Shown in pieces: positions 15,501 to 63,418 of a stretch of 64,000 nt of DNA (its first letter is position 1; every line of letters starts with the position of its first letter). Origin of the DNA: Megaleporinus macrocephalus (Eukaryota > Chordata > Actinopteri > Characiformes > Anostomidae); NCBI GenBank assembly GCA_021613375.1, contig CM038726.1:9432253-9496252 (forward strand), written 5' to 3'. Made by a program: the position numbers and the translations under genes. Under the pieces are notes generated by a model. That model had not been told where the DNA came from. It saw only the letters and a list, made by a program, of their open reading frames with translations, and did not search any database.

Positions 15501-18500
15501 CTAAATACACACATTACACACTGATTTATACTCACACTCATCTAAATACACACACATTACACACTGATTTATACTCACACTCATTACACACTGATTTATA
15601 CTCACCACTCATCTAACTACACACACATTACACACTGATTTATACTCACACTCATCTAAATACACACACATTACACACTGATTTATACTCACACTCATTA
15701 CACACTGATTTATACACACCACTCATCTAAACACACACATTACACACTGATTTATACTCACCACTCATCTAAATACACACACTACACACTGATTTATACT
15801 CACCATTCATCTAAATACACACATTACACACTGATTCATACTCACCACTCATCTAAACACACACATTACACACTGATTTATACTTACACTCATCTAAATA
15901 CACACATTGCACACTGATTTATACTCACACTCATCTAAATACACACATTACACACTGATTTATACTCACCACTCATCTAAACACACACATTACACACTGA
16001 TTTATACTTACACTCATCTAAATACACACATTGCACACTGATTTATACTCACACTCATCTAAATACACACATTACACACTGATTTATACTCACCACTCAT
16101 CTAAACACACACATTACACACTGATTTATACTCACACTCATCTAAATACACACATTACACACTGATTTATACTCACGTCTCAGTGGACTGTCCTGTGAAG
16201 ACAATAATATGAAGTGAATATTTCATGCATGGAATCATAAGTGCTGCTGTAATTTTGTCTCTGTCCTCTCTGTTTGTTTCTCTGTCATTAATTTCCTGCA
16301 GGGTTGTGTTATAATTCATTGATGATATGAACACGAATGTGTTTCTTTTATCTGCTGTGTGTGTTTCTCATCAGTGAACTTCACTGTCTCTACATTTCTG
16401 CAGTGCAGTGGGATTATGTACAGGTGCATTGTGGGAAGGAAGGAGGGAGATGGAGATCAATAACCTTCATTCTGTTATCAGAGACTTTGTTCATCACATG
16501 ATCATTAAATAAAACTGTTATTTTAAAATGTGGTGTATGTGAGTATCAGCTGTCAGTAGGAGGAGAAAATATTATTTACTTACCACATAAACTGTTTAAA
16601 CAACAGAAAGAGACAATGTTTACAATTAGAAAAGTTCAGAATCTCTTTATCTCCTTATCAGAAATCTCCTTTTCTCATCTGTACTGTCGTTTTTCATCCT
16701 TCACTACTGAACTGTCACTCAATGCTTTCAGTACAGCTTCATGAAGATGTTCAGCTAAACAGTTAAAGTGTAAACCTACAGCAGAAACTCAACACTTACA
16801 GATATAACTGATAAATATTTACAGTAAAGTTCATTAGTAAACTAGTAATTATGCAGTAACAATTTATTAATTAATATATTAAATATCAATAATGAGTTAT
16901 GTATTATACTTTGTTAATAATGAATAAACATAAGAAGTACTTTTTTTTTCCTGCAGTAGTTACATTTAAAGTAAAGTAAAGTACATTTACAGACTGATCA
17001 ACTGATATATTAACTAATAGATTAATCAATATAAAAACTATTATTAACTAATTATTACACACTGATTTATACTCACGTCTCAGTTCTTCTGTTTCGAATT
17101 CCCCCTGTGAAGAGAATAATATGAAGTGAATGTTTCATGTGTGGAATCATAAGTGAATTATTAGATGTAAATATCAGTAATGCTGGAGACTTAACAACAC
17201 AGTGAATGTAGAAAACACTGCACTGTTTGTGGAGTTTCTTTTCTTTATGAGGATCTGATACAGACTGAACGTCATATTTCATATTTTTGTTTCAGTAATT
17301 ATAATATTATCTGCTGCTGTAACTTTGTCTGTGTCCTCTCTGTTTCTGTTCGTACTTTCCTGCATATCTGTGTTATAATTCAGTGATGATATGTATATGA
17401 ATGTATATGTATGTATATGTATATGAATGTGTCTCTATTGATCATTAAAAGAGTTTATTAAAGGGGATTACATTTTCTGCTTCAGCTGCTTCTAAAATTC
17501 CATCTTCCAGCTTCTCTGCTGGCAGCCCAACTGCTTCTCCCTCACATTACAATCTTCTGTTTATTATTACACCTGAGATTCTGTTATTTACTAATGAGAT
17601 TCATTCAGACTGCCTCATATTTGAGTCACATGTTATAAATAAATGAACTTTTGTAAAATAAAGATCATTTTATTTTTTAAACATTTGAGTGAAAGTAGAA
17701 ATGAGGGCAGACGTGTGTTTCTGGGATGTGAGTAAAAATACTGTGGAATCAACTGTTCATCTGAATTACACACTTGAGATCCTGTTTGCATCAGTTTTAT
17801 TTAAAGATGCAGGGAAGAAGAAACACAGCTGGAGAAATACGACTAGTTCACTGAATAATGGAGGAAATCTGCTCTCACAGTTTTAGATTATTGTGTTTGT
17901 ACAGTATTATATAAAAACCCTGCTGGACAGCTCTGTGAGGGGAAAGTACAACATTAATGTAATAAATACAATAATAATAACAACGTTATTCATATAGAAT
18001 CAATGTATGAAAAATATATTATTCTTCTCTATTTCAGTCTGTCTTACTCTCCTCCCTCTTCATTCTCTCCTTTCTTATCTGTCTTATAACAGACTATAGA
18101 ATTTAGAGCTGCAGGATAAATTATGTTTTTACTGTAATGGTAATAAGAGATTCCTGGCCCTTCAAAATAAGATTCCTTGCTGAGAAACACACATAAAAAT
18201 GTTTTTACATAAATATAATTGGATTAAACTTAGTATTAGTCCCTTTTTAGAACTGGACATAATGAAGTTAAATACTGAACTAAACCCAGTATTAGACTCT
18301 TTTTAGAACTGGATATAATAAAGTTAAATACTGTACTAAACCCAGTATTAAACTCTTTTTAGAACTGGACATAATGAAGTTAAATACTGTACTAAACCCA
18401 GTATTACACTCTTTTTAGAACTGGATATAATGAAGTTAAATACTGTACTAAACCCAGTACTAGACTATTTTTAAACTAATCCCAGTATTTGACTGTTTTT

Positions 18501-21500
18501 ACAGTTGGATATAATTAAGTTAAATACTGAATATCCAGCTCTAAACAGCTCTAAATGGGTCTAATACTGGGTTTAGTTTAGTATTTAACTTCATTATACC
18601 TAGTTTTAAAAAGTGACTAATACAGTACATAACTTTATTATATCCAGTTCTAAAAAGAGACTAATACTTTGTTCAGTACAGTTTTTAACTTCATGATATC
18701 CAGTTCTAAAAAGGTACTAATACTGGATTTACTACGGAAATTAGTATTAGTCTCTTTTTAGAACTGGATATAATGAAATAAAATACTAAACTTAACCCAG
18801 TATTAAACCCTTTTTAGAATTTGATATATGAAGTTATGTACTGTATTAGTCAAAAACTATGTATAAAGAAGTTAAATACTAAACTAAACCCAGTATTAGA
18901 CCCCTTTTTAGAACTGCATTTAATTAAGTTAAATGCTGTACTAAATCCAGTATTAGACTCTTTTTAGAAATGGATATAATGAAGTTAAATACTGTACTAA
19001 AGCCTGTATTAGATTAGACTATTACTAGACTATTTCTGGAACTGGATAGAATGAGCTTAAATACTAAACTAAAACCAGTATTACACTTTTTTAGAACTGA
19101 ACATAATGAAGTTAAATACTGTGCTAAACTCAGTATTAGTCTCCTTTTTTAGAACTGGATATAATGAAGTAAAATACTGTACCACACTCAGTATTAGTCT
19201 CTTTTTAGAACTGGACATAATGAAGTTAAATACTGTACAAAACTCAGTATTAGTTTTTTTTTTTAGAACTGGACATAATGAAGTTAAATACTGTACTAAA
19301 CCCAGTATTAGAATCTTTTTAGAACTGGATATAATGAAGTTAAATACTGTACTAAACCCAGTATTATACTCTTTTTAGAACTGGATATAATTAAGTTAAA
19401 TATTGTACTAAAGCCTGTATTAGACACTTTTTAGAACTGGATAAAATTAAGTTAATTCCTGTAGTAAATCCAGTATTCGTCCCTTTTTAGTTAAATACTA
19501 AACTAAACCCAGTCTTAGTCGCTTTTTAGCACTTGATATAATGAAGTTAAACACTGTACTGAACACGGTATTAGTCTCTTTTTAGAACTGGATATAAGGA
19601 AGTTAAATACTGTTCTAAATCCAGTATTAGACTCTGTTTAGAACTAGATATAATGAAGTTAAATTCTAAACTTAACCCAGGTGTGCACAGACAACACTAT
19701 ATTCAAAATCAAACAATAAAGTGGGCCAAAAATCTTAGGTTGTTGAGGTAATTCTGACTGTTTCTCAGCATTTTTAGTGCATTTATAATGTGCCCTTACT
19801 TCTGAATGAAGTTTTAAGATTTTTATTTAGTATAATACTGCACAGTTCTGTTGTAATTGTTAAAAAGAGAATTTAAATTTCTGTTTACATAATATGTCTG
19901 TATTTGTGTCACATCCAGTCAGAAACACTCCTATTAATAATAATTTATTGTTTCTACTTTCTATTGTGACATCTGACAGATTTATTGTACATCTCAAGTT
20001 ATGTTAATCTCTCAAATCTCTTTCTAGAAAATCTATAATGAGAGATCTGCAGACTGAATAAGAGAAGCTGATTATTCTTAAATGAAGTGAAAGGACGTGT
20101 AGGAGATGAGAGGATCTCAGTAATCAAGTGTTTCAGAGCTGCTGACTGTTCAGTATGTGCTGCTTGTTGTGAGTCACTGATATAGAGACTCATACAAACA
20201 GGCAGATAGTGTGTGTGAGTGTGTCAGAAGCTCCTGCTGTGTGTGTGTTCTGGGCTATTTTCAGTAACAGAGGTGAGAAAACTACAGTAATGAGAGACTC
20301 TCTAATGATAATGATGTACTGATGATGGAACGTCTTACATTATCACATAAGAACAGTGACATCACTCCCAACAGAGTCAAGACTGCTTTAATCTGTAGTG
20401 GGATTATGTACAGGAGCATTGTGGGAAGGAAGGAGGGAGATGGAAGTCAATAACCTTAATTCTGTGATCAGAGACTTTGTTCATCACATGATCATTAAAT
20501 AAAACTGTTATTTTAAAATGTGGTGTATGTGAGTATCAGCTGTCAGTAGGAGGAGGAAATATCATTTACTTACCGGATAATCACCTGTTTAAACAACAGA
20601 AAGAGACAATGTTAGATACAAACATCCACAACATCATTTAAAATGAGAAAAGTTCAGAATCTCTTTATCTCCTTATCAGAAATCTCCTTTTCTCATCTGT
20701 ACTGTCCTTTTTCATCCTTCACTACTGAACTGTCACTCAATGCTTTCAGTACAGCTTCATGTTGTTCAGCTTAACAGTTAAAGTGTAGAAACTCAACATT
20801 TACAGAAATAACTGCAAACAATTTACAGTAAAGTTCATTAGTAATTCTGCAGTAACAATTCATGAATGAACATATTTAATATCACTAATAAATTATGTAT
20901 TACACGTTATTAATTATTATTCATTCATTATTAATAATGAATGAACATGAGAAGGAATTGTCTTTTCCTGCAGTAGTTACATCTCATAAAGTACATTTAC
21001 AGAATAAAAAGACAGATTAACTGATATATAAATTAAAATATTAATCAATATAACAACTATTATTAACTGATATAGCAGCAACAGAGAGAAGATCATAAAC
21101 AAACATTAATAAACTAATAATAAATAGTTAAAATAAGAAGAATGTTTTGTGTTGTGATATTTCCTCAATGAATAAGGAATATAAAAGCAATGAATGAAAT
21201 GAATGAAAAGCAATGAATAAACTAAATATAAAGACTAACAGATTAATCAGTGTAACAGTCAGGAGTCATGATCTTCAGGGTAGAGTCTTAATACTTAAAC
21301 ACAAATGTTCTGCCCTCGATATAGGTGCTGAATATATCTTGACAGACAGATAAACGTTCTCCTAACATCAAGACTCTGAAGACACTTGGTCCTTATCCAC
21401 AGGTTTATTGACGTTGCAAGGAAAGGTGAAACTAAAACATACAGAAAAACAATATTCAATAATATGCTCGCCTTTAGCATGTGCTGATTAACCACCTTTT

Positions 21501-27500: not shown

Positions 27501-30448
27501 TGGAGGAAAATGTTTCCTGACTCGCTCCTCCAAAACACCCCAAAGTGGCTCAATAATATTTAGATCTGGTGACTGTGCAGGCCATGGGAGATGTTCAACT
27601 TCACTTTCATGTTCATCAAACCAATCTTTCACCAGTCTTGCTGTGTGTATTGGTGCATTGTCATCCTGATACACGGCACCGCCTTCAGGGTACAATGTTT
27701 GAACCATTGGATGCACATGGTCCTCCAGAATGGTTCGGTAGTCCTTGGCAGTGTAAAAGTAAAGTAACAAAAGTAACATTTCCCTAAAATAATGGCCTAG
27801 GTTGGTAGATAACAATAAACACTAGTTACATACCCACAATGCTAGTAATGACATTAGGATGTATGCAGATCTCACTGGACTGACTTTCCATTCAATGTAC
27901 CACAATTCTGAAGAGCAGCCTGCTCTCACTTCCTGATAATATGTGATAGGCTGCTTAAACCCCCAGTGGTTCTAGTCTATTGAGACCAAGTGGTTTAATG
28001 GTGAACCACAACTGGCTACTGAATATTCTTATACAAAAATGGAATGAGGCTTCTAAACCCAACCATGTACTTGTGGCAGGACAACAACCAACACTTCAAC
28101 TCATAATATCTCTCAGAAATAGGAGAATCTCATGAGATTAAAACTACAACTGGATTTAAATAATAAAATCTTAATAATGGAGAGATTAAGTTAAATATCT
28201 TACACAAAAGATGGAAAAGTAAGAATTAAATGAGTGAGTCGAGTTACCTTCCTCTATCATTAACATCCTGTACTGAGACTCGTTTATACCACAGTAAGAC
28301 ATTAGGAATATCTCCTAGTAGACACACAGACAAGATCTGCTCTTCTGTATCTTCTGAAAAGTGAATGTGATCATCTCCTCAATCACTTTCTGCTGCACTT
28401 CTCTGACTGTCTGTAACCTGTTTGTTCTGTATTTACTTCATATTCCAGCTGATCAATTACTAATATTTCATTATTAACTACATTATTTCTTCATTAATCA
28501 GTATTAAATATAAATGCTGATATAAACGTGACTCTGCGGTTAAAGTACATGTAAGTACACCACTCATCTAAACACACATTATACACTGATTTATACTCAC
28601 CACTCATCTAAATACACACATTACACACTGATTTATACTCACCACTCATCTAAATATATACATTACACACTCATCTATACTCACACTCTTCTACATACAC
28701 ACATTGCACACTGATTTATACTCACGTTCCGAATGAATCTCCTGTGAAGAGAATAAAATGTATGGAATCATAAGTGAATTATTAGATGTAAATATCAGGG
28801 AAGCTGGAGATTTAACAACATAGTGAATGCAGGAAGTGCTGTTTCTTTTCTTTGTTTTCCTTCTTTATTTTTTTTTCCTGTATTTTTATTTTATTTGCTG
28901 CTGTAATTTTATCTGTGTCTTCTCTGCCTGTCTCCCTTTTACAACTGGATATAATCAAGTTAAATACTGTACTAAACTCAGTATTAGACTCTTTTAGAAC
29001 TGGATATAATGAAGTTAAATATTGTAGTAAACCCAGTATTAAACTCTTTTAGAACTGGATAAAATAAAGTTCAATATTGTACTAAAGCCTGTATTAGAGT
29101 CTTTTTAGAACTAGATATATTATAACTGCCTGGTCCCCTGTACATGAACAGCGGGACCACCAATCATCAACATTCTGCGGAGTCATCACAGTCCTTATAG
29201 GGGGAGACACAGGCTCCGGGGCTTCCACTTAACCCCTCACGTTCCAACACAGATTGAATAGACATGTTTGAATAATTTATTTGCCTATTTTTTTGTAATT
29301 GTCTAGATGTTGATTGTCAAACTGTAGGTAGATAAAGTAGACTCTACAGTGTCTCTACATTTCTGCAGTGCAGTGGGATTATGTACAGGAGCATTGTAGT
29401 AAGGAGGGAGGGAGATGGAAGTCAGCAACCTTCATTATGTTATCAGACTTTGTTCATCACATGATCATTACATAAAACTGTTATTTTAAAATGTGGTGTA
29501 TGTGAGTATCAGCTGTCAGTAGGAGGAGGAAATATCATTTACTTACCAAATCACCTGTTTAAACAATAGAAAGAGACAATGTTAGATAAAAACATCCACA
29601 ACATCATTTACAATTAGAAAACTTCAGAATCTCTTTATCTCCTTATCAGAAATCTCCTTTTCCCATCTGTACTGTCCTTTTTCATCCTTCACTACTGAAC
29701 TGTTACTCAATGCTTTCAGTACAGCTTCATGAAAATGTTCAGCTAAACAGTTAAAGTGTAAACCTACAGCAAAAACTCAACACTTACAGAAATAACTAAT
29801 TACACAATTAAAAGTACAGTTCTTTATTAAAGTAGTAATTAAGAACTTAAGGTAACAGTGTTATTAGTGTAGTGTCAGGCTGCTGTGAGTTCTCCACTAT
29901 AGTGATACATACAGTGCTGAAGTGTGTGTTAGTAACTCTCTCTGCTGATGATGTTCAAATGAAAACTCTGAACACTCAGTACAGAAAAATACATTCAGTC
30001 TTTACACCAAAACACTCATCAACAATCAACACGACTAAATACACACAATACACACTGATTTATACTCACTTTCCGGTGAAATCACCTGTGAAGAGAATAA
30101 TATGAAGTGAATATTTCATGTATTATGAATTATTATGTATTATGAATTATTAGATGTAAATATCAGGAAAGCTGGAGTGACACAGTGAATGTAGAAAACG
30201 CTGCGAGTTTCTTTTCTTTATGAGGATCTGATACAGAATGAATGTCACATTTTATATGTTTTTCAGTAATTTTAATATTATTTGCTGCTGTAATTTTGTC
30301 TGTGTCCTCTCTGTCTGTCTGTCTCTCTGTCTGTCTGTCTGTCTGTGTTTGTCTGTCTGTCTGTATTTACCTGCAGGGCTGTGTTATAATTCAGTAATGA
30401 TATATATGTTTATGTATATGTATATGAATATGTATGTATATCTATGTG

Positions 30449-30479
<31 letters not shown>

Positions 30480-33400
30480 GTGTATGTATATGTATATGTA
30501 TATGTATATGAATATATATGTATATGTATGTGTATGTGTATGTATATGTATATGTATATGAATATATATGTATATGAATGTATATGTATATGCATGTGTC
30601 TCTATTATTCATTAAGAGTTTATTTAAGGAGATTTATTTTCTGTTTCAGCTGCTTTTAATATTCCATCTTCCAGCTTCTCTGCTGGCAGCCCAACTGCTT
30701 TCAGAGCTTCTTTTTTACAGTAACCCTAACCCTAACCTTCTGTTCATTATTACACCCAAGATTCTGTTATTTGAGTATTAGATTCTTTTTAGAACTGGAT
30801 ATAATGAATTTAAATACTGTACAGTACTCCTTATTAGATTATTTTTAGAATGGATATAATGAAGTTAAATACTAAACTAAACCAAGTATTAGTCTCTTTT
30901 TAGAACTGTATATAATGAAGTTAAATACCACAACTAAACCCAGTATTAGACTCTTTTTAGAACTGGATGTAATAAAGTTAAACACTAAACTAAATCCAGT
31001 ATTAGTCTCTTTGCAGAACTGGCTATAATGAAGTTAAATACTGTACTAAACCTATTATTAGACTCTTTTTTAAACTGGATATTATAAAGATTAATACTGT
31101 ACTAAACACAACATTAGACTCCTTTTAGAACTGGATATAATGAATTTAAATACTGTACTAAACCCAATATTAGACTCTTTTTAGAATGGATATAATGGAT
31201 TTAAATACTGTACTAAACCCAGTGATGATCTCTCTATAGAACTGGATAAAATACCGTTAAACACTAAGGTAAACCCAGCCTTAGACTCTTTTTAGAATTG
31301 GATATAATGAAGTTAAATACTAAACCAAACCCATTATTAGACTCTTTTTAGAAATGGATATAATGAAGGTAAATACTGTACTAAACCCAGTATTAGTCTA
31401 TTTTAGGAATGGACATAATGAACATAAATACTGTACTAAATCTAGTATTAGACTCATTTTAGAAACGGACATAATGAAGTTAAATACTTTACTTAATCTA
31501 TTATTAGACTCCTTTTAGAACTGGATATAATAAATTTAAATACTGTACTAAACCCAGTAATAGTCTCTCTTTAGAACTGGATATAATACCGTTAAACACT
31601 GAGGTAAACCCAGTATTAGACTCTTTTTACAAATGGATATAATGAAGTTAAATACTGTACTAAACCCAGTATTAGACTCTTTTTAGAAATGGATATAATA
31701 AATTTAAAAAACTAAACCCAGGTGTGCACAGACACCATTATATTCAAAATCAACAAACAATAAAATTGTGCAAAATATCTTTTTTACAAAGTTAGTGGCA
31801 ATTCTGACTGTTTCTCAGCTTTTTAGTGCATTAATAATGTGCCCTCATGTCTGATTAAAGTAACTGTTAATATTTCGTTTATTTTTATTTAGTATAATAC
31901 TGCACAGTTCTGTTGTAAATGTGTGTTCTGCTGTTTGCTTAAAGGAGGGTTTAAGTATGTTGTGGTGAGGTGAGAAAACTACAGGAATGAGAGACTCTAA
32001 TGATAATGATGTATTGATAATGGAACGTATCGAATATTTCCTTATCACACAGTGGCATCACTGCGCTTAATTCTTTTGCCTGTTTCTCATCAATGAACTT
32101 TCTGCAGTGCGATGGGATTATGTACAGGGAATTGTTGTGGGAAGGAAGGAAGGAGATGGAAATCAATAATCTTTTTTTCTGTTAGCAGAGACTTTACATT
32201 AAATAAAGACATTAATAAAACTGCTATTTTAAAATGTGTATGTGAGTATCAGCTGTCAGTAGGAGGAGGAAATATCATTTACTTACCAAATCACCTGTTT
32301 AAACAACATAAAGAGACAATGTTAAATAAAAAACATCCACAACATCATTTACAATTAGAAAACTTCAGAATCTCTTTATCTCCTTATCAGAAATCTCCTT
32401 TTCTCATCTGTACTGTCCTTTTTCATCCTTCACTACTGAACTGTCACTCAATGCTTTCAGTACAGCTTCATGAAAATGTTCAACTAAAGAGTTAAAGTGT
32501 AAACCTATAGCTACAGTAAACCTACAGTAAAGCTCATTAGTAAACTAGTAATTATGCATAGAGATGGACCAATCAGCGTTTTTGAGGCCAATTCTGTTCG
32601 CCGATCATCTATCAGCACGATCGGCTGATAGCCAATACCGATCGAAGGCAGGGCTATATGCCATGGCAGAGATACATGTAGTTATTAGCGCAAGCAAGTC
32701 ATGAAACATGGTCTACACTGGTTTATTACCATTATTAACAAGCTCTTGTGAAACAGCATAATGTTTAAACAAAATTAACAGTAAATCAAACAAATATCCC
32801 CAATACTGCATTCATTAAATTTAGACCCTTTAAAACTAAGAAAGCTAATTAAATACATGCAGTTAAAACTGCAGTCACTAAACGCGGACTCTGGTTAATT
32901 TAAACAAAAACTGCAATCATTAAATGTAGATCTTGAATTGTTGCTGCTGTACTGTTCGTACCGGTCAGATCTGGTCTGCCCGGTGTTCTGGGTTATTTGT
33001 TTTGTGCTAACTGCTGTTTACTGATACTCACTGTATTCAGCCATGTGGTGTACTCTTAAGTGCCGTATCAGAGTAGTAGTATTTGAATGTCTTTGTCTTG
33101 GTTCCCCCACGAGACACGATTTTACAAATTGTAAAAACATCCTCCATGATTCTGTGTCACATATGGTAAACAACTGCCAGACGGACGACATGTTTTCTAT
33201 CAGCGAAAGCAGTGAACGCCATATTTTGATCATATTTTAAAATCGGCCGTTACCGATACATAGTCGATCAATATTTCCATCTCTAATTATGCAGTAACAA
33301 CTCATGAATTAATATATTAAATATCAATAATGAATTATGCATTATACATTTACAGAATAAACAGACAGATCAACTTATATATAAACTAAAAATGAATCAA

Positions 33401-40904: not shown

Positions 40905-40909
<5 letters not shown>

Positions 40910-45450: not shown

Positions 45451-45452
45451 AT

Positions 45453-45580: not shown

Positions 45581-45661
45581 AGTTATGAAAACTTAAGCTT
45601 GGGAGAAGGATCATGCCCAAACTCCTCCTCACACTCATTATATGCCTTATATACATTACTC

Positions 45662-46136: not shown

Positions 46137-46139
46137 AGT

Positions 46140-49755: not shown

Positions 49756-49759
49756 ATTA

Positions 49760-49930
49760 TTAGGCTATCAAATTATGCTACCTATGGTTTTAATGTAGGA
49801 AGTTTTGTTTTATGATGTTATTTAGGCTATCAAATTATCCTACTTGTGGTTTAAATGGAGGGAGTATTGTTTTATGATGTTATTTAGGCTATCAAATTAT
49901 GCTACCTTTAGTTTTAATGCAGAGAGTAAT
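49760..49930 (+). repeat. 62-bp tandem repeat, three units
   Basis: Units start near 49760, 49822 and 49884 with TTAGGCTATCAAATTATG and end in TTTTAATG(C/T)AG-like sequence. The same repeat occurs inverted at 45453-45580, about 4 kb away. Confidence 0.85.
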
Positions 49931-49934
49931 GAGG

Positions 49935-51777: not shown

Positions 51778-53051
51778 TCAGCATGTAGAGACTCTCCTAC
51801 TGATCTCCTTTTGCTCCTGAGCAGCTCCTCCTGTATATTTATGGACCTCCTCCAGTAAAGTGCTACTAAGTTCTCTCACTCTGAGTCTTAGTGTCTCCAC
51901 CTCTCTGTCCTTCTCATCCAACTGGCTGCTGAACTCGTCCTGCATCTTTGACTTTAAGGCCAAAATGTTTCTCTGGAGTTCAGGCAGGATGATCTTCATG
52001 AGGTTTCTTTCTGCCTCCATTCTGGCTTCTCCTTCATACATCTCCCTGATCTCCTCCATCTCCTGTCTGTGTCTCTCCTCCATCTCTCCCCTGTCCTTTT
52101 CACTCTCTTCTTTCAGTCTCTCTAACTCCAACTGAACCTCATTCCTCTGCTCAATCTCTCTCTCCCTCTCTCTTTCCAGCTCTACCTTTCTCTTCTCATC
52201 TCTTTCCTCTTTGAGTGTTTCCTCTAGTTTAACTATTCGCTTTTCATGCTGATTTATTTTTGTATGAAAGTCCGAAGTTGATTCTGTAAACTTCATAAAA
52301 GTCTCCTGTACACATCTCTCCAGTTTCTCTTTTGTTTCTCTTTCTTCTCTCTCTCTTATCTCCTCTTTTTCTCTCACAATTATTTTCTCTATCTCTTTGA
52401 TCTGAGATTCTATCTCCAGGTAGATCTCACTGCTGTAGAACTTCTCTCTGTTTCCTTCCACCATCTTCTCTATCTTCTCCAGCAGCTCTGAGGTTTGAAA
52501 AGCGTCTCTGCTCTCCTTAATGCTGAGACAGTGAAACCTGTTCCCACATTTCTCTACAAGTCTCTGGACCTCCTGCTTTCCTGACTGGATAAACTCTTCA
52601 ATGTTCTTCTCCTGGACGTCATCATTAACAGTGAAAAGGATCATGGTGTTCCTCCAACATCTCTCTCCAAAGATCTCCTCCATTTTCTCCAGCATCCCTC
52701 TCTCCTCTCCTGTAGACTGCTTCACTGGTATAACTAGGAGAAAGACATGGGGTCCTGGAGCAGACAGGCGGACACAGAGTCCCACGTCCTGTCTTAGCTC
52801 CTCCAGAGAGAGTCCAGGACAGAACCAGTCAGGAGTATCCACCACAGTCACCTGCCTCCCAGCCACCTCCCCCTGTCTGCTCTCACTCTGCTGCCTAACT
52901 GTAGACGCTCCAGCCTGGCTCCTCTCCTCTCTGCCCAGGATGGTGTTTCCTGCTGCACTCTTCCCACATCCAGTCCTCCCCAGCAGCACCAGCCTGAGTT
53001 CTGCTACAGGAACTGACACTGGAGAGGCTGAACTAGAGGATTCTCCACTCA
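51778..53051 (-). CDS. Gene 1 terminal exon: GIMAP/AIG1-type GTPase with long coiled coil
   Basis: 424 codons to a TGA stop. G domain, about residues 18-215: P-loop GRTGCGKSAAGNTIL (G1), VVDTPDW (G3, Asp in place of the common Gly), and a LFTVNDDV segment at the G4 position. AIG1-family blocks such as FLLVIPVKQSTGEERGMLEK and KCGNRFHCLSIK are present. Residues about 215-410 are a continuous charged coiled coil. The exon starts after CTGCAG with TG, so its ATG is completed by the A from the preceding exon. Length exceeds a basic GIMAP (about 200-300 residues) because of the coiled-coil tail. Recognised with high confidence as GIMAP; the particular member cannot be named. Confidence 0.93.
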
Positions 53052-56000
53052 CTGCAGATCAACAAGAATAAGGATTTTAATCTCTTATTATAAGCTGGTG
53101 ATCATTCTGTTCAGAGAAATGTATACGACTGTATGAAACTGAAATTATTTACTATATAGAGGAGGTTCTTTACTGTTTCTTCTCCTGAGCGGTGCTGCAG
53201 GTTCTGGAGTCTCTCCACTGACTATGAAACAGAAGAACCACATATAATGAAGATTTTTTAAATTATTATTTAATTTAATTTGTATTATATTGTATATTAT
53301 TCTAGTACAGATTATTTTTAGTAATATTAAAAAATGTGTTCTAATGTAACACCTACAGTGTATGATCAATATTTAGTTACTTACAGTGTTGAGATATCAT
53401 GTCCTTACTGTTTCTTCTGCTGGCTGCCACGGATGACTCTGGATCTGTTCTTTCCTGCAGCTGCTTGTTTCTCTCTTCTAGAAGTCTGTCTTTCTCCTCA
53501 ACCTGCTTCTTTCTTTCCATTAGCTGTGTGTTTCTCTCACTTAGAGATTTCTCCTTCTCTTCCATCTGTTTGTCTTTTTCACTCAGTTCAGTTTTCTGTT
53601 GTTCAATAATCTCTAAATGTTCTTTTATAGTCACGTCTTTCTCTTTCAGTTTTATTTCTTTATCATTCAGTTGTTGTTTAATCTCTTTTAATTCTTCATC
53701 TTTTCCCACAAGTCTTTTCTCTATTTCTTCTCTTTGTATTCTATGATTCTCTGATTTCATTGTTGTTTGTATCAGTTCATCTTGTGTCTCTGTGAGAAGT
53801 TTTTCTTTCTTTTCTAATATTTTGTTCTTCATCTGAAGTGCTGCTGTATTTTCAGTCAGAAGTCTGTTTTTCTCCTCGGCTTGTTTCTCTCTCTCCATTA
53901 ACTGTGTGTCTCTCTCAGCAATAATAGTTCTTGTTTCTTCTAGCTTTTTGTTCTTGTCAGTTAAATCTGTAAGAAAACATACATTTAGAGAAAGTAAGTG
54001 TATTAGCTGGAAAAGAAACAAAACCACAAACTGACTTTATTTTTATTGAACAATTAGCCAGTTTACAGATATACAGTACTGAGATTTAACAACAATTAGA
54101 TTATTAGAAACAAATAGATTTTATTTCCCTGTTACAAAAACATTGGAAAAAATGTCAACTAAAATACAATGAGTCAAATGCATTAATGAAAAAAATAATT
54201 GTGCAAATTAGTTAATAACAATTACACCAGTTAAAACTCTAGAAACACCTACTTAAAAATAGAAATATTAAAATATATACTATAGTCTAGAAATAATAAA
54301 GACGTAAATTAAATGGAGGAGATCAATTAATATTTTTCTCTTTGTTTTTACAATCTGCTGCATTTTACAATCATAGTGAAACATTGAAACTATAATATAA
54401 CACATACAGGATTATATACACACCAAAGAATATAAACAAATCAAAAATATCATCTTATATAGATTTAGTTTTAAATTACACTGCTTTACACACACGTGAC
54501 ATTTTCTCAAGACAGAGTCAGTTTAAAGAGATCCTGGTCAGTTCATATCCCATTACACTAAAAACATGACTGCAAAACACTGGTCCTCAACGAATGGGAA
54601 TTTATAAAGATAATGGCTAAAAACAAAAAAATTATGTTTTCCTTTATTTTAAAGCTTAAAATTCAGAAAGAATAAATTCTCTCTCCTGGTGATTTTCCAG
54701 CAGGACTGAACTCACACATATGCTGATATGCTAAACGTTTGACTGCTCGTGTCTGTCTATAATGATTCAGGTACATTAATGAACACAGTTAATAAAGACT
54801 GAAACTGCTGAGCTTAAACCTGAAAACTCACCAGTCATCTGTGATGAAATGATACTTTTCAGGGTTTCAGTTTCAGTCTGTAGGTCAGAATTCTGCTGTG
54901 CTGAAATGATAAAGACACAATATTAATTTGATCACTCAGATATTTTCTAATCAGTCTGTGTGTTAAATTCTTACCTGTGTGTTTAAGTTGTTGTTCTTTC
55001 TCTTCTAACTCTTTCTGCTGACGAGTGACTTCAGTTTTCTGTTCTTCCAGTCGGATCATCATCTCCTGTAGTTTGCTGCTCTTGTCCTGCAGTTCCTTTC
55101 TCAGTGTGTCCAGTTGTTTTTTACTGCTGTCCACCTCTTTTACTGTGCTCTCCAGTAAAGTCTCTTTCTCTCTCAGTAGTTTGATCTGGTTCTCCAGTCG
55201 TCTGTCTTTATCTTTAAGTCGTATCTGATTCATTTCAGATTCTTTGCTCATTTGTTCTAGTTTGTCTTTTATCTCCTGAAGAAGTTTTTCTTTCTCTTCC
55301 AGCATCTTGTCCTTCATCTGAAGTGTCTCTGTGTTTCTGGTCAGAATTTTTTCTTTCTCTTGAATTTGTTTGTCTTTTTCTATCAGTTGTGTGTTTCTCT
55401 CTATTAGAAGACTCTCTTTATCTTTAAGATGTTTGGTCAGTCCTGGACAATCTGGGAAAAACACATTTATTTAACATTTAACATCCAGCTGGTCATACGA
55501 CTGATTCACAAACATTAATATTAGTTTAAAATATTAGTTTCAGTATTCGCAGCTCATCAATTTTGTTGTTCAGTTTTGATTCTCCTTTGTCTGTGAACTA
55601 AACTCCATTAAAGTTAAATCCCACCAGTTTAAAATAATTCATTATAATTAAATGATTACAATAACAAGATGCTCAATGTGGTTTGATGTGAAATCATCCA
55701 GTCAGAATTATTCAGTGTTGGTGATGAGAACCAGATATCCAAAGTTTAATGTTTCCAAAATCTTATATATTATTATATATTAATAATATATTATTATATT
55801 CAATTATTACAAATTATAAATATGATTCCTGAGACATTGATTTATGATGATTAAATCTCACCGGTTAGCAGAGCAGATTCCTCCATTTCCATTTTCTCCT
55901 CTTCTGTCCATTCTCTGTTACTCTGAATAAAACAGAGTGAAGATTTAATGTGTGACATCATTCTGTATGTTATGTGATCAGTAAGTGTTTCTCTGTTTAA

Positions 56001-59000
56001 ATCACTGTTGATGTGTCAGTATGAATCACTGAGAGCTGATATTAATATAACAGTAGAGACTCTGATGAGTTGAAATGATTTAAAATGATACTGTGCTTGA
56101 AAATCAGCATCTTTTAAAGTGGTGTTTAATCAGCATTATGTTCATTATTTGTTTACAGTTGTGGGACTTTAAACACAGTCTGACTGAGACAGAGTTCACA
56201 CATACACTACAGAGACTGTGCTGTGATCATCACACACAGTATTTTATTAAGAACTGAATAAGAGCTATTTTACATCATATACTTTCAGTTTTCAGAATAA
56301 ATCATTCATCAATCAGGACCTCATGGGAAGAGAGTAACAGATCCACAGAAACACACAAATCAGAAAAGAAGAATTAAAAACAGTTCCAGCTCTGCAGTGT
56401 CTGAGGATCATGATCACTTACAGAATACTGATCAGCATTAACACTATAATAACATCAACTCAACACCATGAAAGAGAAATCAACATTAAAGAAGCTCAAT
56501 TAATGTAAACTTTATGAAGAATTTTAAAAATAATATTAAAGCAGATTATTAAGGAAATGTGGTCTATTTAGAATAATGTGCTCACCTGATAAACGATGAC
56601 ATCTATGACAGATTAGAGAGAAAACAAAACTTTTACAATATTGAAAATATATAAGATAAAACATTATATCACTGTTTTCTACAGTAATACAGGAAGATGT
56701 TGTGTAGATGTTTTGAAGGGACGTATCATGAAAATTTAATTCTCCTCAATTGTTTTTAAATATGGATCTTTAATTAACTCTATCTGCTACCGTATTAACA
56801 GTTAGACTTTTAAACTCTTTATAATAATCATTAGTTCCTCTTTCAGATCATGTTTATATTCTAGAGTTTGAGAGGAAAAATGAATAAACACTAAAACTGA
56901 AACTGCAAGTTAAAGAGATAAAAATGAAGCTGGTTTAAAGTGTGAATGTTCTGTATCTTCTAAGAAGTGAACCTGATCATCTCCTCAATAAGTCTCCTCA
57001 TCTAAATACACACATTACACACTGATTTATACTCGCCACTCATCTAAATACACACATTACTCACTGATTTACACTCACCACTCATCTAAATACACAAATT
57101 ACACACTGATTTATACTCACCACTCATCTACATACACACATAACACACTGATTTATACTCACCACTCATCTAAATACACACATTACACACTGATTTATAT
57201 TCACCACTAATCTAAATACACACATTACACACTGATTTATACTAATCACTCATCTAAATACACACATTACACACTGATTTATACTCATCACTCATTTAAA
57301 CACACACACATTACACACTGATTTATATTCACCACTCATCTAAATACACACATTACACACTGATTTATACTCACCACTCATCTAAACACACACATTACAC
57401 ACTGATTTATACTCACCACTCATCTAAACACACGCATTACACTAATTTATACTCACCACTTATCTAAATACACACATTACGCACTGATTTATACTCACCA
57501 CTCATCTAAATACACACATTACGCACTGATTTATACTCGCCACTCATCTAAATACACACATTACACACTGATTTGTACTCGCCACTCATCTAAATACACA
57601 CATTACACATTGATATATACTCACCACTCATCTAAATACACACATTACACACTGATTTATACTCAACACTCATCTAAACACACACATTACACACTGATTT
57701 ACACTCACCACTCATCTAAACACAAACATTACACACTGATTTATACTCACCACTCATCTAAACACACACATTACACATTGATTTATACTCACCACTCATC
57801 TTAATACACACATTACACACTAATTTATACTCACGTGTCAGTGGAGGCTCCTGTGAAGAGAATAATATGAAGTGAATATTTCATGTATGGAATCACAAGT
57901 GAATTATTAGATGTAAATATCAGTAAAGCTGGAGACAACACAGTGAATGTAGAAAACACTGCACTGTTTGTAGAGTTTCTTTTCTTTATGAGGATCTGAT
58001 ACAAACTGAACCTTATAATAGTATTTACTGCTGTAATTTTGTCTGTCTGTGTGTCTGTCTATATTTACCTGCAGGGCTGATAATATATAATTCAGTGATG
58101 ATATGTACATCGCTGTCCAATGAAAAACATGTATCTCCATTTTTGTCAATTTTGACTTTTCTACATCATTTGAACACGCCAATGGTGGTTTACATTGTGT
58201 GAAAATTCATGATGAATGGACCAATAGAAGTGCTTCAAAATAGCTTGGGAAAAATTCTGGTTCCACTTCCATTGACTTCCATTGAAAGTAAAGTATGTTT
58301 TTGGTCTCTCCTGAAAAGTTTTGAAAAGCAATTTTGGAGATACTTGCTTTTCATTGGACAGCGAAGATATGTATATGTATATAAATGATGATATGTATAT
58401 ATATGTATATGTATGTATATAAATGTGTCTCTATTGGTCATTAAAAGAGTTTAAGGAGATTAATTTTCTGTTTCAGCTGCTTTTAATATTCCATCTTCCA
58501 GATTCTCTGCTAGCAGTCCAACTGCTTCTCTCTAGAGCTTTCAGAGCTTCTCCCTCACATTACAACCTTCTGTTTATCATTACACCTGAGATTCTGTTAT
58601 TCCTAATGAGATTCACTCAGACTGATGCGTATTTGAGTCACGTGTTATAAATAAATGAACTTTTGTGAAATAAAGATCATTTTATTGTTTTAAACATTTG
58701 AGTGAAAGTAGAAATGATGTCAGATGTGTGTTTGTGGGATGTGAGTAAAAATGATGTGGAATCATCTCTTTTCATCTGAATTACACACTTAAGATCCTGT
58801 TTGTATCAGTTTTATTTAAAGATCTAGAGAAGAAGAAACATAGCTGGAGAAATACAACTAGTTCACTGAGTAATATGTAATATATAATAAAGTTAAATAC
58901 CAAACTAAACATTTCAAAAACATTATTCAAAAACAAATAATATAGTATATAATAAATTTAAATATAATTATTTGTTTTTGTGGTCTTTGTACAAAATGTA

Positions 59001-62000
59001 AGCAGCAGTTACTATTTAATTAATTCTTATTGTCTACAACAGTGAACAGTATTTTTGTAATTATGTGTTTCACTGTGTGTTTAAAGGAGATTATCAATAA
59101 TAATTATTAGTAGTAATTTATTGTTTCTAATTTCTATTGTGATAAAACATCACACGTTAGGTTAATGTTGAGCATCTCTGAGAAATAGAAACAGTCTGTT
59201 GAATTGATGCTTGAAGCTCTGAGTTACATATAAAACTAAAAACAAAACAAAACATCTCTCAAATCTCCTTCAGACACTGTAAGATTAGTGTAACTCTTTC
59301 CTGATCATCTAGAAAGTCTATGATGAGAGATCTGCAGACTGAATAAGAGAAGCTAATTATTCTTAAATGAAGTGAAAGGACGTGTAGGAGATGAGAGGAT
59401 CTCAGTAATCAAGTGTTTCAGAGCTGCTGACTGTTCAGTATGTGCTGCTTGTTGTGAGTCACTGATATAGAGACTCATACAAACAGGCAGATAGTGTGTG
59501 TGAGTGTGTCAGAAGCTCCTGCTGTGTATGTGTTCTGGCTATTTTCAGTAATTCAGTAAACTACAGTAATGAGAGACTCTCTAACGATAATGATGTACTG
59601 ATGATGGAACGTCTCAAGTATTACATCATCACATAAGAACAGTGACATCACTCCCAACAGAGTCCAGACTGTTTTTATGTGTTGTGTGTGTTTCTCATCA
59701 GTGAACTTCACTGTCTCTACATGTCTGCAGTGCAGTGGGATTATGTACAGGAGCATTGTGGGAAGGAAGGAGGGAGATGGAGATCAATAACCTTCATTCT
59801 GTGATCAGAGACTTTGTCCATCACATGATCATTAAATAAAACTGTTATTTTAAAATGTGGTGTATGTGAGTATCAGCTGTCAGTAGGAGGAGGAAATATC
59901 ATTTACTTACTAAACCACCTGTTTAAACAACAGAAAGAGACGATGTTAGATAAAAACATCCACAACATCATTTACAATTAGAAAACTTCAGAATCTCTTT
60001 ATCTCCTTATGAGAAATCTACCATTCTTCTTTCATCCCTGCACTGACTGCACTTAAGACTTGTTTATACCACAGTAAGACATTCTGAACATCATATATCT
60101 CCTAGTAGACATACAAACAATATCTGCTCTTCTGTATCTTCTGAAAAGTGAACCTGATCATCTCAATAAGTCTGACTTTCTGCTGCACTTCCTTTGACTG
60201 TCTGTAACCTGTTTGTTCTGTATTTACTTCATATTCCAGCTGACCAATTACTAATATTCCATTATTAGCTACATTAAATTTTCATTGAACTGTGTTAAAT
60301 TAACAGCTGCAATGTATCACATTTTAATAATACAGTTTAACAGACCATCAAATTCGGAAACAACTTTCCAAAGTGTTTTCAAAGACAGATCACATTTAGC
60401 AGTTAACATTAAATCAGTCAACCAATATTACTGCTGACTGATGATGTTCACTATTGTCTGGCTCAAAAATATGAGAAGCAGCCAAGGCTTAAGTGAAGAA
60501 GTGTTTTCGTTTGATCTGGATCAGTTCCTAAAAGTATCGTCTCATTGCATTAAGCTTGTTATTTAACTTTCTAGGTAATTATTACTGTTAGTTCTTAATT
60601 ATTGTCCTTGTAGATATTGTAGTTTTTAGCCTTTCAGATTCACTCAGAGCAAAAAGCAATTGTTAGACTAAAGATATATAAAGATCACGATAATGCAATC
60701 ATCCCAGAGTTTTGCGTGCCTCTATATTTCACAGTGGTTAACGCTCCTGTTATACAGCACCCCGTCCATGTTTATCTAGCTTGTTAGTTCGTTGGGTATC
60801 CTGTCTGACTCACTTTTTATCGAATAGAAATAAATCACTAATGTAAGTGGCCTCATCCACATGTGATGGTTCCTTACTGCACTGCCAGTCTTTTTGATGT
60901 TAGGAAAGTTAGATTAGCTGTGATGACAGGGATTTAGTTGTAACATATTTAGTTGTATATTCAGGTGAATAAAGTCTCAAGAAGTATTTTGTAAGTCAAC
61001 TTGGTGGTTATGTGATGAGTACTGGTAAGTAATTTAGTCACACCTATCTGTCTGTACACCAGCAAAAGTCTTCACCTGTCTGTATACCAGTAACAGTATT
61101 CACCTGTCTGTATACCAGCAAGAGTCTTCACCTGTGTGTATACCAGTAACAGTATTCACCTGTCTGTATACCAGTAAGTCTTCACCTGTCTGTATACCAG
61201 GAAGAGTCTTCACCTGTCTGTATACCAGTAACAGTCTTCACCTGTCTGTATACCAGTAAGCCTTCACCTGTCTGTATACCAGGAAGAGTCTTCTCGTGTT
61301 TGTATACCAGTAAGTCTTCACCTGTCTGTATACCAGTAAGTCTTCACCTGTCTGTATACCAGGAAGAGTCTTCACCTGTCTGTATACCAGTAAGAGTCTT
61401 TACCTGTCTGTTTACCAGCCTATGCCAGCATGAAATTTGCGTTAGTAACTCTCTCTGCTGATGTTCAGCTGAACACTCTGAACACTCAGTACAGATAAAT
61501 ACATTCAGTCTTTACACCAAAACACTCTTCATCAACAATCAACACATACAAATACAAATACACAAATTACACAGTAACGTATACTCACGTCTCACAGCTC
61601 TCCTTAAAATGTCCTGTAAAGAAAATGATATAATGTGAAAAATATATTATTCTTCTCTATTATAGTCCATCCAACACTCCTCCCTCTTCACTCTCTCCTC
61701 TCTTATTTCTTATTACACACTGTGGAATTTAGAGCTGCAGGAAAAATTATATTTATACTGTTAAGGCAATATTACCTTCCCTGCTCTTCAGAATAAGAGT
61801 CCTTGCTGAGAAACACAAATAAAAGTCTTTTTTTTAAATAAACAAAATTAACCTAAACCCAGTGTTCTCTTTTTTTTAGAATATAACCTAAACCCAGATG
61901 TGCACTAACACCACAGTCAAACAATGAAACAGAAATGTGCACTTTTTTCATATACTTGTATACATTTTTAATTTAGTAAATGTTTTTTAGTAAATGTTTT

Positions 62001-63418
62001 TTTAGTAAAGACTGTTTCTCAGCCTTTAAGTGCACAAATAATGTGCCCTCAGTTCTGACTGAAATAACTGTTTGTATTTTTTTTTTTTTAGAACAATAGT
62101 GCACAATATTTTTGTAAATGTTTGCTCTTTCTGTTTTGAGATTAAAATTAATTGATACTTTAGTCAACTAATGAAAACGAGACGAAAATGTTTGGCAGGG
62201 ACGACATCCAATCAGAACTTGTTTAGTTTTGTGAAAGGCGGGGACAAGTTAGGGAAACATCTAATCATAACTACTTCAGCGTATATGGGGAGGCGGGACA
62301 AGCCCAGTAGCCGTCAATCAAACGTCAAAAGTTTAGAGTTTGTGTTTAGAGAAAATCACCTCACCACGCTGGACATCACCCCTCCAGCACCACCGTCAGC
62401 TAGCTTTACCACTGCTAACGCTAGCTTAGCCTTTCTTAATCCTAGTCCTGAAAACACACTGTCCTGTACAGTTTAGAGCGTGTCCTGCTGTAAATGCTGT
62501 ATTAACTCAGTAAGGTGGTGTTAATGATCAGATTAGTTGATCAGGTATGTGGGAAGCAGGTGAAACGCTGTATGTGCAGAGCAGTGTGTCCAGACCAGAG
62601 TCTGGACACAAAACTAGCTAGCTAACTCCAACCATCTGCGTTTGATTATCATGTCCCAAATCTCTCCATACACACTAGAAAGTGCACAAAACAGATTAGT
62701 TTTAGATTCGCTTTTACAGCTAGTTTTATTTACAATTTATTAGTGCACGTGATATGCAGTGTGTGTCTCTAGTGAACACTGTGAATGTGACAGTTTTTCA
62801 TTCATTGATTTACTGTTATGCTAAAATTTAATTGAATTGCACAATTAAAAATACATTTATAGCAAAAAGTGATAAATGCAATTAATGTAAATTAGTTAAT
62901 CACAGAGCATGTAATTTAATTAGATTGACAGCTCTAGTAACAATTAATACATAAATAAGAGATAATAAATAAAAAGGTGATGCAAGGATAAAATAACAGA
63001 TCTCTTATTCACTTTGCAGTTACGGAAGAGCTCAGATGTTTATCTATTTGTGTGTATATTGGTCTTTTAAACATGAATAATATTCCATATCTGGTTAATA
63101 AATGTTTCATTTTGTGTATGTATATATAATTTATGATTAAATTATGATTAAAACTAAATTACATTTTAGTAAAAAGACTACGACTAAAACTAAATCAAAA
63201 TTTGCTGTCAAAATTGACACTGTTCTGCAGTGCAGTGGGATTATGTACAGGAGCATTGTGGGAAGGAAGGAGGGAGATGGAGATCAATAACCTTCATTCT
63301 GTGATCAGAGACTTTGTTCATCAGATGATCATTAAATAAAACTGTTATTTTAAAATGTGGTGTATGTGAGTATCAGCTGTCAGTAGGAGGAGGAAATATC
63401 ATTTACTTACCCAACCAC
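51778..63418 (-). CDS. Gene 1: microexon linker / coiled coil / GIMAP GTPase protein (11 exons in window, 5' end missing)
   Basis: From 5' to 3': 63418-63411, 61613-61589, 59918-59911, 57850-57835, 56602-56586, 55922-55862, 55451-54975, 54900-54832, 53966-53409, 53220-53173 and 53051-51778. With one carried base these sum to 2562 nt, 854 codons including stop, open throughout. Layout: short microexon linker, three coiled-coil exons, two RRN-ended exons, then a GTPase with a second coiled coil. GIMAPs are septin-related GTPases of vertebrate immune cells that assemble on intracellular membranes. The 5' end, probably with an Ig exon as in gene 2, is beyond 64000. Gene 1 and gene 2 are tandem paralogues about 17 kb apart with different C-terminal effectors. 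Confidence 0.72.
53173..53220 (-). CDS. Gene 1 exon H (48 nt), RRN repeat exon
   Basis: Acceptor CATAG, donor GTAAAG, phase 1 to 1. Encodes ISGETPEPAAPLRRRN. The SGE start matches the start of the GTPase exon and the RRN end matches the end of the preceding exon, so these look like duplicated linker exons common before fish GIMAP domains. Confidence 0.7.
53409..53966 (-). CDS. Gene 1 coiled-coil exon G (558 nt)
   Basis: Acceptor TTTTCTTACAG, donor GTAAGG, phase 1 to 1. Encodes 186 residues of heptad repeat ending SSVAASRRN. Its start (AERDTQLMEREKQAEEK) is homologous to the start of exon E ([17 protein letters not shown]), indicating exon duplication. Expected to mediate oligomerisation. Confidence 0.8.
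53967..54831. other. Intron of gene 1
   Basis: AT-rich intronic sequence between coiled-coil exons; nothing else recognised. Confidence 0.6.
54832..54900 (-). CDS. Gene 1 exon F (69 nt)
   Basis: Acceptor ATCATTTCAG, donor GTGAGT, phase 1 to 1. Encodes 23 residues, QQNSDLQTETETLKSIISSQ within a coiled-coil register, bridging exons E and G. There is no counterpart in gene 2. Confidence 0.7.
54975..55451 (-). CDS. Gene 1 coiled-coil exon E (477 nt)
   Basis: Acceptor TTTTTCCCAG, donor GTAAGA, phase 1 to 1. Encodes 159 residues of charged heptads starting DCPGLTKHLKDKESLL. Close paralogue of 8746-9084 in gene 2, with extra repeats at the C-terminal end. Confidence 0.8.
55862..55922 (-). CDS. Gene 1 exon D (61 nt)
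   Basis: Acceptor TTATTCAG, donor GTGAGA. Encodes SNREWTEEEKMEMEESALLT and enters the coiled coil in phase 1. Orthologous position to 12057-12117 in gene 2. Confidence 0.72.
56586..56602 (-). CDS. Gene 1 microexon C (17 nt)
   Basis: ATGTCATCGTTTATCAG between CTGTCATAG and GTGAGC. With one carried base it encodes H-V-I-V-Y-Q. The flanks are nearly identical to those of gene 2 microexon C. Confidence 0.62.
56998..57834 (-). repeat. 42-bp minisatellite starting at a splice donor (gene 1)
   Basis: About 20 units of the same repeat as at 14560-16176, again directly abutting the donor of a B microexon. A parallel expansion, or an inherited array, in the paralogue. Confidence 0.9.
57835..57850 (-). 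CDS. Gene 1 microexon B (16 nt)
   Basis: GAGCCTCCACTGACAC between CTCTTCACAG and GTGAGTATAAAT. Encodes E-P-P-L-T plus one base. Confidence 0.6.
58111..58363. mobile_element. 253-bp MITE
   Basis: Perfect 16-bp inverted ends, CGCTGTCCAATGAAAA and TTTTCATTGGACAGCG, continuing imperfectly to about 35 bp. No coding sequence. Target duplication is not clear because it sits in a TATG-rich tract. Confidence 0.85.
59911..59918 (-). CDS. Gene 1 microexon A (8 nt), second copy
   Basis: GTGGTTTA between GTTTAAACAG and GTAAGTAAAT. With one carried base it encodes R-G-L. Confidence 0.6.
61040..61425. repeat. 27-30 bp minisatellite
   Basis: About 13 units containing CACCTGTCTGTATACCAG followed by a variable TAAGTCTT / GAAGAGTCTT. 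It lies in the intron between the two A/B pairs of gene 1. Confidence 0.92.
61589..61613 (-). CDS. Gene 1 microexon B (25 nt), first copy
   Basis: Between TTCTTTACAG and GTGAGTATAC. Encodes D-I-L-R-R-A-V-R plus one base. Nine bases longer than the common B exon, so phase is kept. Confidence 0.58.
62130..63222. mobile_element. hAT-like non-autonomous element
   Basis: The right end (minus strand CAGTGTCAATTTTGACAGCA, followed by a GATTTAGTTTTAGTCGTAG stretch) is the typical terminus of a widespread vertebrate hAT family. The left end is diverged and only approximate. No intact transposase. It lies in the gene 1 intron between a B and an A microexon. Confidence 0.5.
63411..63418 (-). CDS. Gene 1 microexon A (8 nt), first copy in window
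   Basis: GTGGTTGG between GTTTAAACAG and GTAAGTAAAT. Encodes x-G-W, with the first base supplied by an upstream exon outside the window. Confidence 0.58.

What the first reader, a model, noticed from the sequence alone, without database searches (positions are those of the whole stretch)
16177..63418. Six pairs of alternating, phase-balanced microexons
Six A microexons (8, 8, 11, 8, 8, 8 nt) and six B microexons (16, 16, 28, 16, 25, 16 nt) alternate along both genes. Every A is 2 modulo 3 and every B is 1 modulo 3, including the three with unusual lengths, so each pair adds whole codons. That constraint is hard to explain without translation. All A exons share the acceptor context GTTTAAACAG and donor GTAAGTAAAT; all B exons share a T(C/T)TT(C/T)ACAG-type acceptor and donor GTGAGTATA. 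The result is an expandable linker of 8-13 residue modules.
Basis: seen in the sequence. Interest (0 to 1): 0.86.

Follow-up and report, generated by a model that had tools for sequence, protein, structure and literature searches.

The report
Hypervariable swappable mini-exons in fish genes
In a cluster of fish immune-like genes, tiny exons of 8 to 28 DNA letters that code for a short protein linker differ from copy to copy while the DNA on both sides is nearly or exactly the same, which suggests that these protein pieces are diversified and swapped at high speed.

Summary
Confirmed and extended. They lie between a butyrophilin-like V-set Ig exon and a coiled coil (plus an AIG1/GIMAP GTPase in gene 2).

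An exact search of the 1.28-Gb own genome found 60 A-type sites, all on one chromosome, and 58 B-type sites, 57 on it. A lengths are 8, 11 or 14 (60 of 60 are 2 mod 3); B lengths 16 or 28 (57 of 57 are 1 mod 3). Variation concentrates at codon positions 1 and 2 (1 of 20,000 column shuffles reaches it), so translation is very likely.

The surprise: exons vary, flanks hardly do. 26 of the 60 A copies share identical 100+100-nt flanks but carry 18 different exons; A exon and flank distances are uncorrelated. I read this as diversifying selection on a variable linker plus gene conversion of its flanks. No transcripts were available.

The parts
35092..35110 (-). Gene 1 exon 1, coding start ATG (MATASN), no signal peptide seen
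   Evidence: the same 24 nt, donor included, occur in 3 places of the 264-kb region, one per Ig exon found
34643..34960 (-). Gene 1 V-set Ig exon, phase 1 to 1
   Evidence: Pfam V-set 1.5e-14; best PDB relative butyrophilin 1A1, 2.9e-13, searched with gene 2's Ig
32287..32294 (-). A microexon 1, 8 nt
30070..30085 (-). B microexon 1, 16 nt
29547..29554 (-). A microexon 2, 8 nt
28726..28741 (-). B microexon 2, 16 nt
20574..20584 (-). A microexon 3, 11 nt
17077..17104 (-). B microexon 3, 28 nt
16584..16591 (-). A microexon 4, 8 nt
16177..16192 (-). B microexon 4, 16 nt; the 42-bp minisatellite starts at its donor
12642..12658 (-).
   Evidence: intron flanks like those of gene 2's C
12057..12117 (-). 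61-nt exon (E61) of gene 1
8746..9084 (-). Coiled-coil exon of gene 1 up to a possible GTGAGA donor; the reading frame stays open only to about 8687
6290..6555 (-). CARD exon; could be the last exon of gene 1 (phases fit) or belong to another gene
   Evidence: Pfam CARD 4.5e-17; phase check
63411..63418 (-). A microexon 5 (gene 2), 8 nt
61589..61613 (-). B microexon 5 (gene 2), 25 nt
59911..59918 (-). A microexon 6 (gene 2), 8 nt
57835..57850 (-). B microexon 6 (gene 2), 16 nt
56586..56602 (-). C microexon of gene 2, 17 nt
55862..55922 (-). 61-nt exon (E61) of gene 2
54975..55451 (-). Coiled-coil exon 1 of gene 2
54832..54900 (-). 69-nt exon of gene 2
53385..53966 (-). Coiled-coil exon 2 of gene 2
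53153..53221 (-). Short exon of gene 2 before the GTPase
51778..53051 (-). AIG1 (GIMAP-type) GTPase exon of gene 2 with stop codon
   Evidence: Pfam AIG1 7.9e-50

Best explanation
The A, B and C microexons are translated and form a linker between an intracellular, butyrophilin-like V-set Ig domain and a coiled coil that in most relatives is followed by an AIG1 GTPase. The genes form one large cluster. The linker exons are under diversifying selection. Their intron flanks are kept nearly identical between loci by ectopic gene conversion, and the same conversion can carry exon variants from locus to locus, so that exon content has become independent of the surrounding DNA. Extra A-B pairs lengthen the linker by whole codons. 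Shown: exon positions, phases, codon-periodic variation, decoupling of exon and flank, homogenised flanks. Inferred: splicing and translation of every copy, gene conversion as the cause of the homogeneity, and the role (a variable surface loop of an immune sensor or effector).
For: Phases 60 of 60 (A) and 57 of 57 (B), no in-frame stop in any. Column diversity by codon position 1/2/3: B .369/.597/.184, A of 8 nt .514/.648/.168, A of 11 nt .407/.539/.126; 1 of 20,000 column shuffles reaches the contrast. A exon versus flank divergence .388 versus .025 over 1,770 pairs, exon higher in 1,729; B .421 versus .086 over 861 pairs, higher in 850. 26 of 60 A copies have identical 100+100-nt flanks and 18 different exons. 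Of 231 A pairs with no flank difference, 13 have the same exon, and mean exon changes are 3.57, against 3.93 in 417 pairs with flanks over 6% apart; Mantel r .013, 2,112 of 5,000 permutations as high. Two 3-kb segments with 13 substitutions in about 2,794 aligned sites carry GTTTTTCG and GTGATGATCCG. Of 325 pairs within the 26, 20 have a colinear outer flank: the inner 280 nt differ at 19 of 5,598 sites, the outer 300-1300 nt at 356 of 19,501 (my sums of the rows), and the exon differs in 16 of 20. Control exon E61.104 versus .081, higher in 3 of 6 pairs, pN/pS .48; AIG1 pN/pS .22-.49; coiled coil .063/.173. Relatives: linker identity .20 between Ig .74 and E61 .68 in 26 aligned proteins.
Against: No transcript or proteome data. 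Nei-Gojobori pN/pS is only 1.4-1.5 for the A exons and 1.77 for A+B+C of the 264-kb region, with C at .98. Synonymous divergence inside the microexons (.26-.29) exceeds the flank rate, so the flank is not a clean neutral yardstick. Some third codon positions do vary (A column 8 .450, B column 6 .488). For B the exon-flank correlation is weak but present (r .218, 59 of 5,000). 4 of the 20 recent pairs keep the same exon. 27 of the 40 A variants occur once, so plain swapping of whole existing exons does not suffice. The Ig exon itself has pN/pS .68-1.57. The low inner-flank divergence could be constraint instead of conversion. Some annotated relatives lack the linker (zero-length spans).
Confidence: 0.7

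Rival explanations
1. Point mutation and strong positive selection alone: each locus changes its exon by new mutations, while flanks look identical because the duplications are very recent or because microexon splicing constrains them.
For: Variation is mostly at codon positions 1 and 2; many A variants are singletons (27 of 40); flank diversity is lowest beside the exon and rises outward, upstream .010 to .088 over 140 nt, downstream .040 to .110, as constraint would also give.
Against: Window copies work with flanks 2-7% apart, so the sequence is not absolutely constrained; 26 loci over 1.35 Mb on both strands are identical over 100+100 nt; in colinear pairs the inner flank is about five times less diverged than the outer flank. 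The exon rate would have to exceed the flank rate more than tenfold.
Confidence: 0.2
2. A dedicated process targets the cassette, for example templated exchange or local hypermutation that uses the uniform flanks as a recognition or homology element.
For: Exon content is independent of flank relatedness for A; exons differ between segments that are almost identical over 1-3 kb; 15 of 36 column pairs of the 11-nt A exons show all four letter combinations.
Against: Third codon positions 2 and 5 of the A exon are almost invariant (60 of 60 and 58 of 60 T), which untargeted local hypermutation would not leave; ordinary conversion plus selection can give the same pattern; no enzyme or signal was identified.
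Confidence: 0.06
3. The sites are not exons: they are a repeated non-coding motif that happens to look like splice sites.
For: No RNA evidence in hand; some annotation pipelines place no residues there (zero-length spans).
Against: Phase 60 of 60 and 57 of 57, open frames and codon periodicity; annotated relatives carry matching residues, e.g. Pygocentrus model P0066 RDL-SPLRR beside GDL/SDL and DSPLRR of gene 1.
Confidence: 0.04

Closest known systems
Micro-exon genes (MEGs) of schistosomes
   Same: Many very small, phase-compatible exons; variation by exon choice proposed; high dN/dS in mature protein, above 1 in three families (PMC4350168, passages).
   Different: MEG exons are individually symmetrical and most of the coding region consists of them; products have signal peptides. 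Here exons are asymmetric and balance in A-B pairs, sit in one linker of an intracellular Ig protein, and lie in near-identical flanks.
Chicken BG genes and butyrophilin heptad exons
   Same: Single V-type Ig domain followed by a coiled coil coded by repeated 21-nt units; multigene family with expansion, contraction and hybrid genes (PMC4046983, passages).
   Different: BG has an extracellular V domain and a cytoplasmic heptad tail of units that repeat; here no signal peptide was seen, the tiny exons are hypervariable linkers, and an AIG1 GTPase follows.
Zebrafish NLR-B30.2 family
   Same: Large clustered fish innate-immune family shaped by gene conversion and positive selection; conversion is proposed to spread substitutions between loci (PMC4852459, passages).
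   Different: There whole domain exons are affected; here 8-28-nt exons differ while their own introns are the homogenised part.
Accelerated segment switch in exons (ASSET) and accelerated evolution of snake venom genes
   Same: Short coding segments change radically while surrounding sequence is kept (PMC2711939, abstract and outline).
   Different: No microexon cassette and no such decoupling of exon from flank in what I read; different gene families.
GIMAP (AIG1) GTPases
   Same: AIG1 domain, E 7.9e-50, with coiled coil; human GIMAP5 has coiled-coil regions (PMC8201404, passages).
   Different: N-terminal V-set Ig domain and variable linker; the word immunoglobulin does not occur in the main text of that review.

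Membership tests
Butyrophilin-like V-set | V-set domain closest to BTN/MOG | tested here: met
   Pfam V-set 1.5e-14; best PDB sequence match butyrophilin 1A1, 2.9e-13
Butyrophilin-like V-set | Signal peptide and transmembrane segment | tested here: not met
   Start MATASN directly before the Ig exon, stop codons upstream; highest 19-residue hydropathy of gene 1's Ig to coil part is 0.75. Simple hydropathy only, no dedicated predictor
GIMAP/AIG1 GTPase | AIG1 domain | tested here: met
   Gene 2: 7.9e-50. Not found in gene 1, whose coil exon is cut short
Schistosome-type micro-exon gene | Most of the coding region in small symmetrical exons | tested here: not met
   A is 2 mod 3 and B is 1 mod 3, never 0; most codons are in large exons
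Schistosome-type micro-exon gene | Variation by alternative splicing | not testable with these tools
   No transcripts. The phase classes allow 55 in-frame paths for four pairs and 8 for two pairs, which is arithmetic, not evidence of use
Gene-conversion-diversified family | Homogenised tracts of limited length between paralogues | tested here: inconclusive
   Inner flank 19 of 5,598 versus outer 356 of 19,501 in 20 colinear pairs; constraint could also give this
Gene-conversion-diversified family | Donor and recipient tracts observed | not tested
   Needs population or pedigree sequence

The most novel reading that the evidence does not exclude
A vertebrate germline exon-cassette system: about 60 loci of one fish chromosome share near-identical intron cassettes that act as homology arms, so that 8-28-nt coding inserts are exchanged and renewed far faster than the genes themselves, giving each intracellular Ig-GTPase a private variable loop. 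Whether or not a dedicated enzyme is involved, this would be a new way to generate receptor diversity in the germline.
Probability: 0.25. Interest if true: 0.96.

Novelty: new variant of a known kind. Interest (0 to 1): 0.85.

Why it matters
If true, it shows selection and conversion acting on units of 3-9 codons that are exactly delimited by splice sites, in a vertebrate innate-immune-like family that I did not find described as such in ten library searches (open-licence papers only, so not exhaustive). It gives a clean natural test of how fast ectopic gene conversion and diversifying selection work, because exon and flank can be compared within a few hundred bases in dozens of loci. It also warns that annotation without RNA will drop such exons.

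Tried and rejected
Chance splice-like motifs: rejected by shuffles and phases. A lone 8-nt C-type match far from other elements and the single B-type match on another contig with a 12-nt insert were set aside as strays; the reversed B control gave 1 match, the reversed A control 0. Simple recent segmental duplication as the sole cause of identical flanks: most of the eight 3-kb loci lose identity beyond a few hundred bases, partly because a minisatellite follows downstream. A first exon alignment with cheap gaps understated exon differences and was replaced by codon-wise alignment. In the first sliding-window test 3 of 198 flank windows reached the A exon's value and 24 of 173 the C exon's. 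A first gene 2 model broke the frame after coil exon 2 and was corrected. The structure model of Colossoma P0042 (mean pLDDT 64, pTM 0.37) gives strands for the Ig part, a strand at 124-129 and a helix from 135; the linker (116-128) is not predicted disordered there; I did not run a fold search with it. A count of Ig exons genome-wide did not complete. Two Colossoma models that differ by a B+C-sized piece (P0070, P0072) lie on different contigs and are therefore no proof of alternative splicing.

Full report
What the window holds. Two minus-strand paralogues. Gene 1 runs from a short first exon (35092-35110, MATASN) and a V-set exon (34643-34960) through four A-B pairs, C and the 61-nt exon to a coiled-coil exon; gene 2 enters at the window's end with two A-B pairs, C, the 61-nt exon, coiled coils and an AIG1 GTPase. 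Gene 2's first exon and Ig exon lie just outside. The spliced frame is open throughout the Ig-to-E61 part in gene 1, gene 2, a further gene and one partial gene of the neighbourhood. The V-set is closest to butyrophilins; I saw no signal peptide or membrane segment, so an intracellular protein is inferred.

Relatives. A protein search drawn from residues 1-180 gave 84 hits among 612 candidates; 48 of the 84 list the AIG1 domain (my count of the table). They are ostariophysan and a few other fishes, many characiform. The AIG1 exon is up to 90.6% identical over 213 residues to a Metynnis protein, so the source is probably a characiform. Between the Ig end and the 61-nt motif I found 46 linker spans in 42 of the 84 proteins, 0 to 106 residues long; the two longest look like gene-model faults and four are empty. 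In 26 aligned proteins mean pairwise identity is .74 for Ig.20 for the linker.68 for E61 and .85 for the AIG1 core. A piranha model, P0066, has linker residues close to those of gene 1.

Exon against intron in the window and its 264-kb neighbourhood. With 10 A, 11 B and 4 C copies, divergence in exon versus flank is .374/.039.438/.064 and .294/.060; exon is higher in 44 of 45, 55 of 55 and 6 of 6 pairs. Over random disjoint pairings the largest Poisson p is 1.3e-6, 1.3e-4 and .026. The control exon E61 gives .104/.081, 3 of 6. The window alone gave the same picture: 14 of 15, 15 of 15 and 1 of 1.

Genome-wide. GTTTAAACAG-N{2,32}-GTAAGTAAAT matches 60 times in 1.28 Gb, all between 7.06 and 9.87 Mb of the window's chromosome; the reversed control matches 0 times. 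Lengths are 8 (21), 11 (37) and 14 (2). TCTTCACAG-N{4,34}-GTGAGTATA matches 58 times, 57 in the same region (7.06-9.89 Mb), with lengths 16 (48) and 28 (9); control 1. The tool calls such counts lower bounds, and near matches such as the window's 25-nt B are not included. No A exon has a stop in the inferred frame; the next frame has none either and the third has 32 of 60. For B the numbers are 0, 28 and 2 of 57.

Codon periodicity. Diversity falls at codon position 3 in A and B (values in the evidence field); the contrast is reached by 1 of 20,000 column shuffles. Exceptions are A column 8 of the 11-nt exons and B column 6. Nei-Gojobori ratios are moderate (A 1.5; B 1.93; A+B+C 1.77), higher than the controls E61 .48, coil about .36 and AIG1 .22-.49, but the Ig exon reaches 1.57 in one of three pairs.

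Decoupling. For A, flank and exon distance are unrelated (Mantel r .013); 231 pairs with no difference in 150+150 nt share the exon in only 13 cases. 26 copies, spread over 1.35 Mb on both strands, have identical 100+100-nt flanks and 18 exons; 21 are identical over 150+150 nt. For B, 42 copies with flanks show 62 pairs without flank difference and the same exon in 3; ten copies with identical 80+30-nt flanks carry 7 exons; here the correlation is weak but not nil (r .218).

Age and cause. Two 3-kb segments (L080, L083) differ at 13 of about 2,794 aligned sites outside a minisatellite gap, yet their A exons have no more than partial resemblance. Among 325 pairs of the 26 copies, 20 have a colinear outer upstream flank; in these the exon differs in 16, and in 12 of the 15 with outer divergence under 2%; the inner flank is about five times less diverged than the outer. 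These pairs share 15 copies and are not independent. Local homogenisation by gene conversion explains the inner identity; constraint is the alternative. Whole-exon swapping alone is not enough, since 27 of 40 variants are singletons; 15 of 36 column pairs show all four combinations, which fits mosaic tracts or recurrent mutation.

How it may work. In the model of P0042 the linker leads from the last Ig strand to a short strand at 124-129 and then a long helix. A and B residues would form a loop at the foot of the V domain, opposite the antigen-loop end of classical V domains (recalled geometry), and extra pairs would lengthen it. A sensor or effector whose loop is under pressure from pathogens is my inference; nothing here tests it.

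Comparison with the known. It works like schistosome micro-exon genes in building a variable stretch from tiny exons, like chicken BG genes in joining a V domain to repeated small exons, and like zebrafish NLR-B30.2 genes in combining conversion and selection (papers seen as passages). It is not a member of the first, because the exons are asymmetric, and lacks the signal peptide and membrane segment of butyrophilins. I therefore call it a new variant of a known kind, with a bolder reading in the novel case.

Noticed in passing
14571-16176, 56997-57834, 28558-28725: A 42-bp minisatellite (39, 20 and 4 copies) begins at the donor of B4, B6 and B2 and repeats the donor itself: GTGAGTATA occurs 29, 10 and 4 times there. 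It looks like a minisatellite born from a splice donor.
   Followed up: partly
about 21400-28100: A BEL/Pao-type retroelement (Peptidase_A17, 4.8e-40) sits in the gene 1 intron between B2 and A3; similar sequence near both ends, read by eye, suggests long terminal repeats.
   Followed up: partly
6290-6555 and 8687-9084: Gene 1's coil exon is cut short; a GTGAGA donor would join it in phase to a CARD exon, giving Ig-linker-coil-CARD. An Acnodon model (P0079) has V-set, FIIND and CARD domains.
   Followed up: partly
27360-27821 and 37471-37806: Transposon remains: DDE_3 transposase (4.2e-12) and a reverse transcriptase (7.8e-8).
   Followed up: no
18225-19680 and 30774-31708: A 56-bp minisatellite lies in introns of gene 1; repeats also follow the A cassettes about 265 nt downstream in most of the eight 3-kb loci.
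   Followed up: no
P0002 (Tachysurus): One catfish model repeats the Ig-linker-61-nt-motif unit three times in a row.
   Followed up: no
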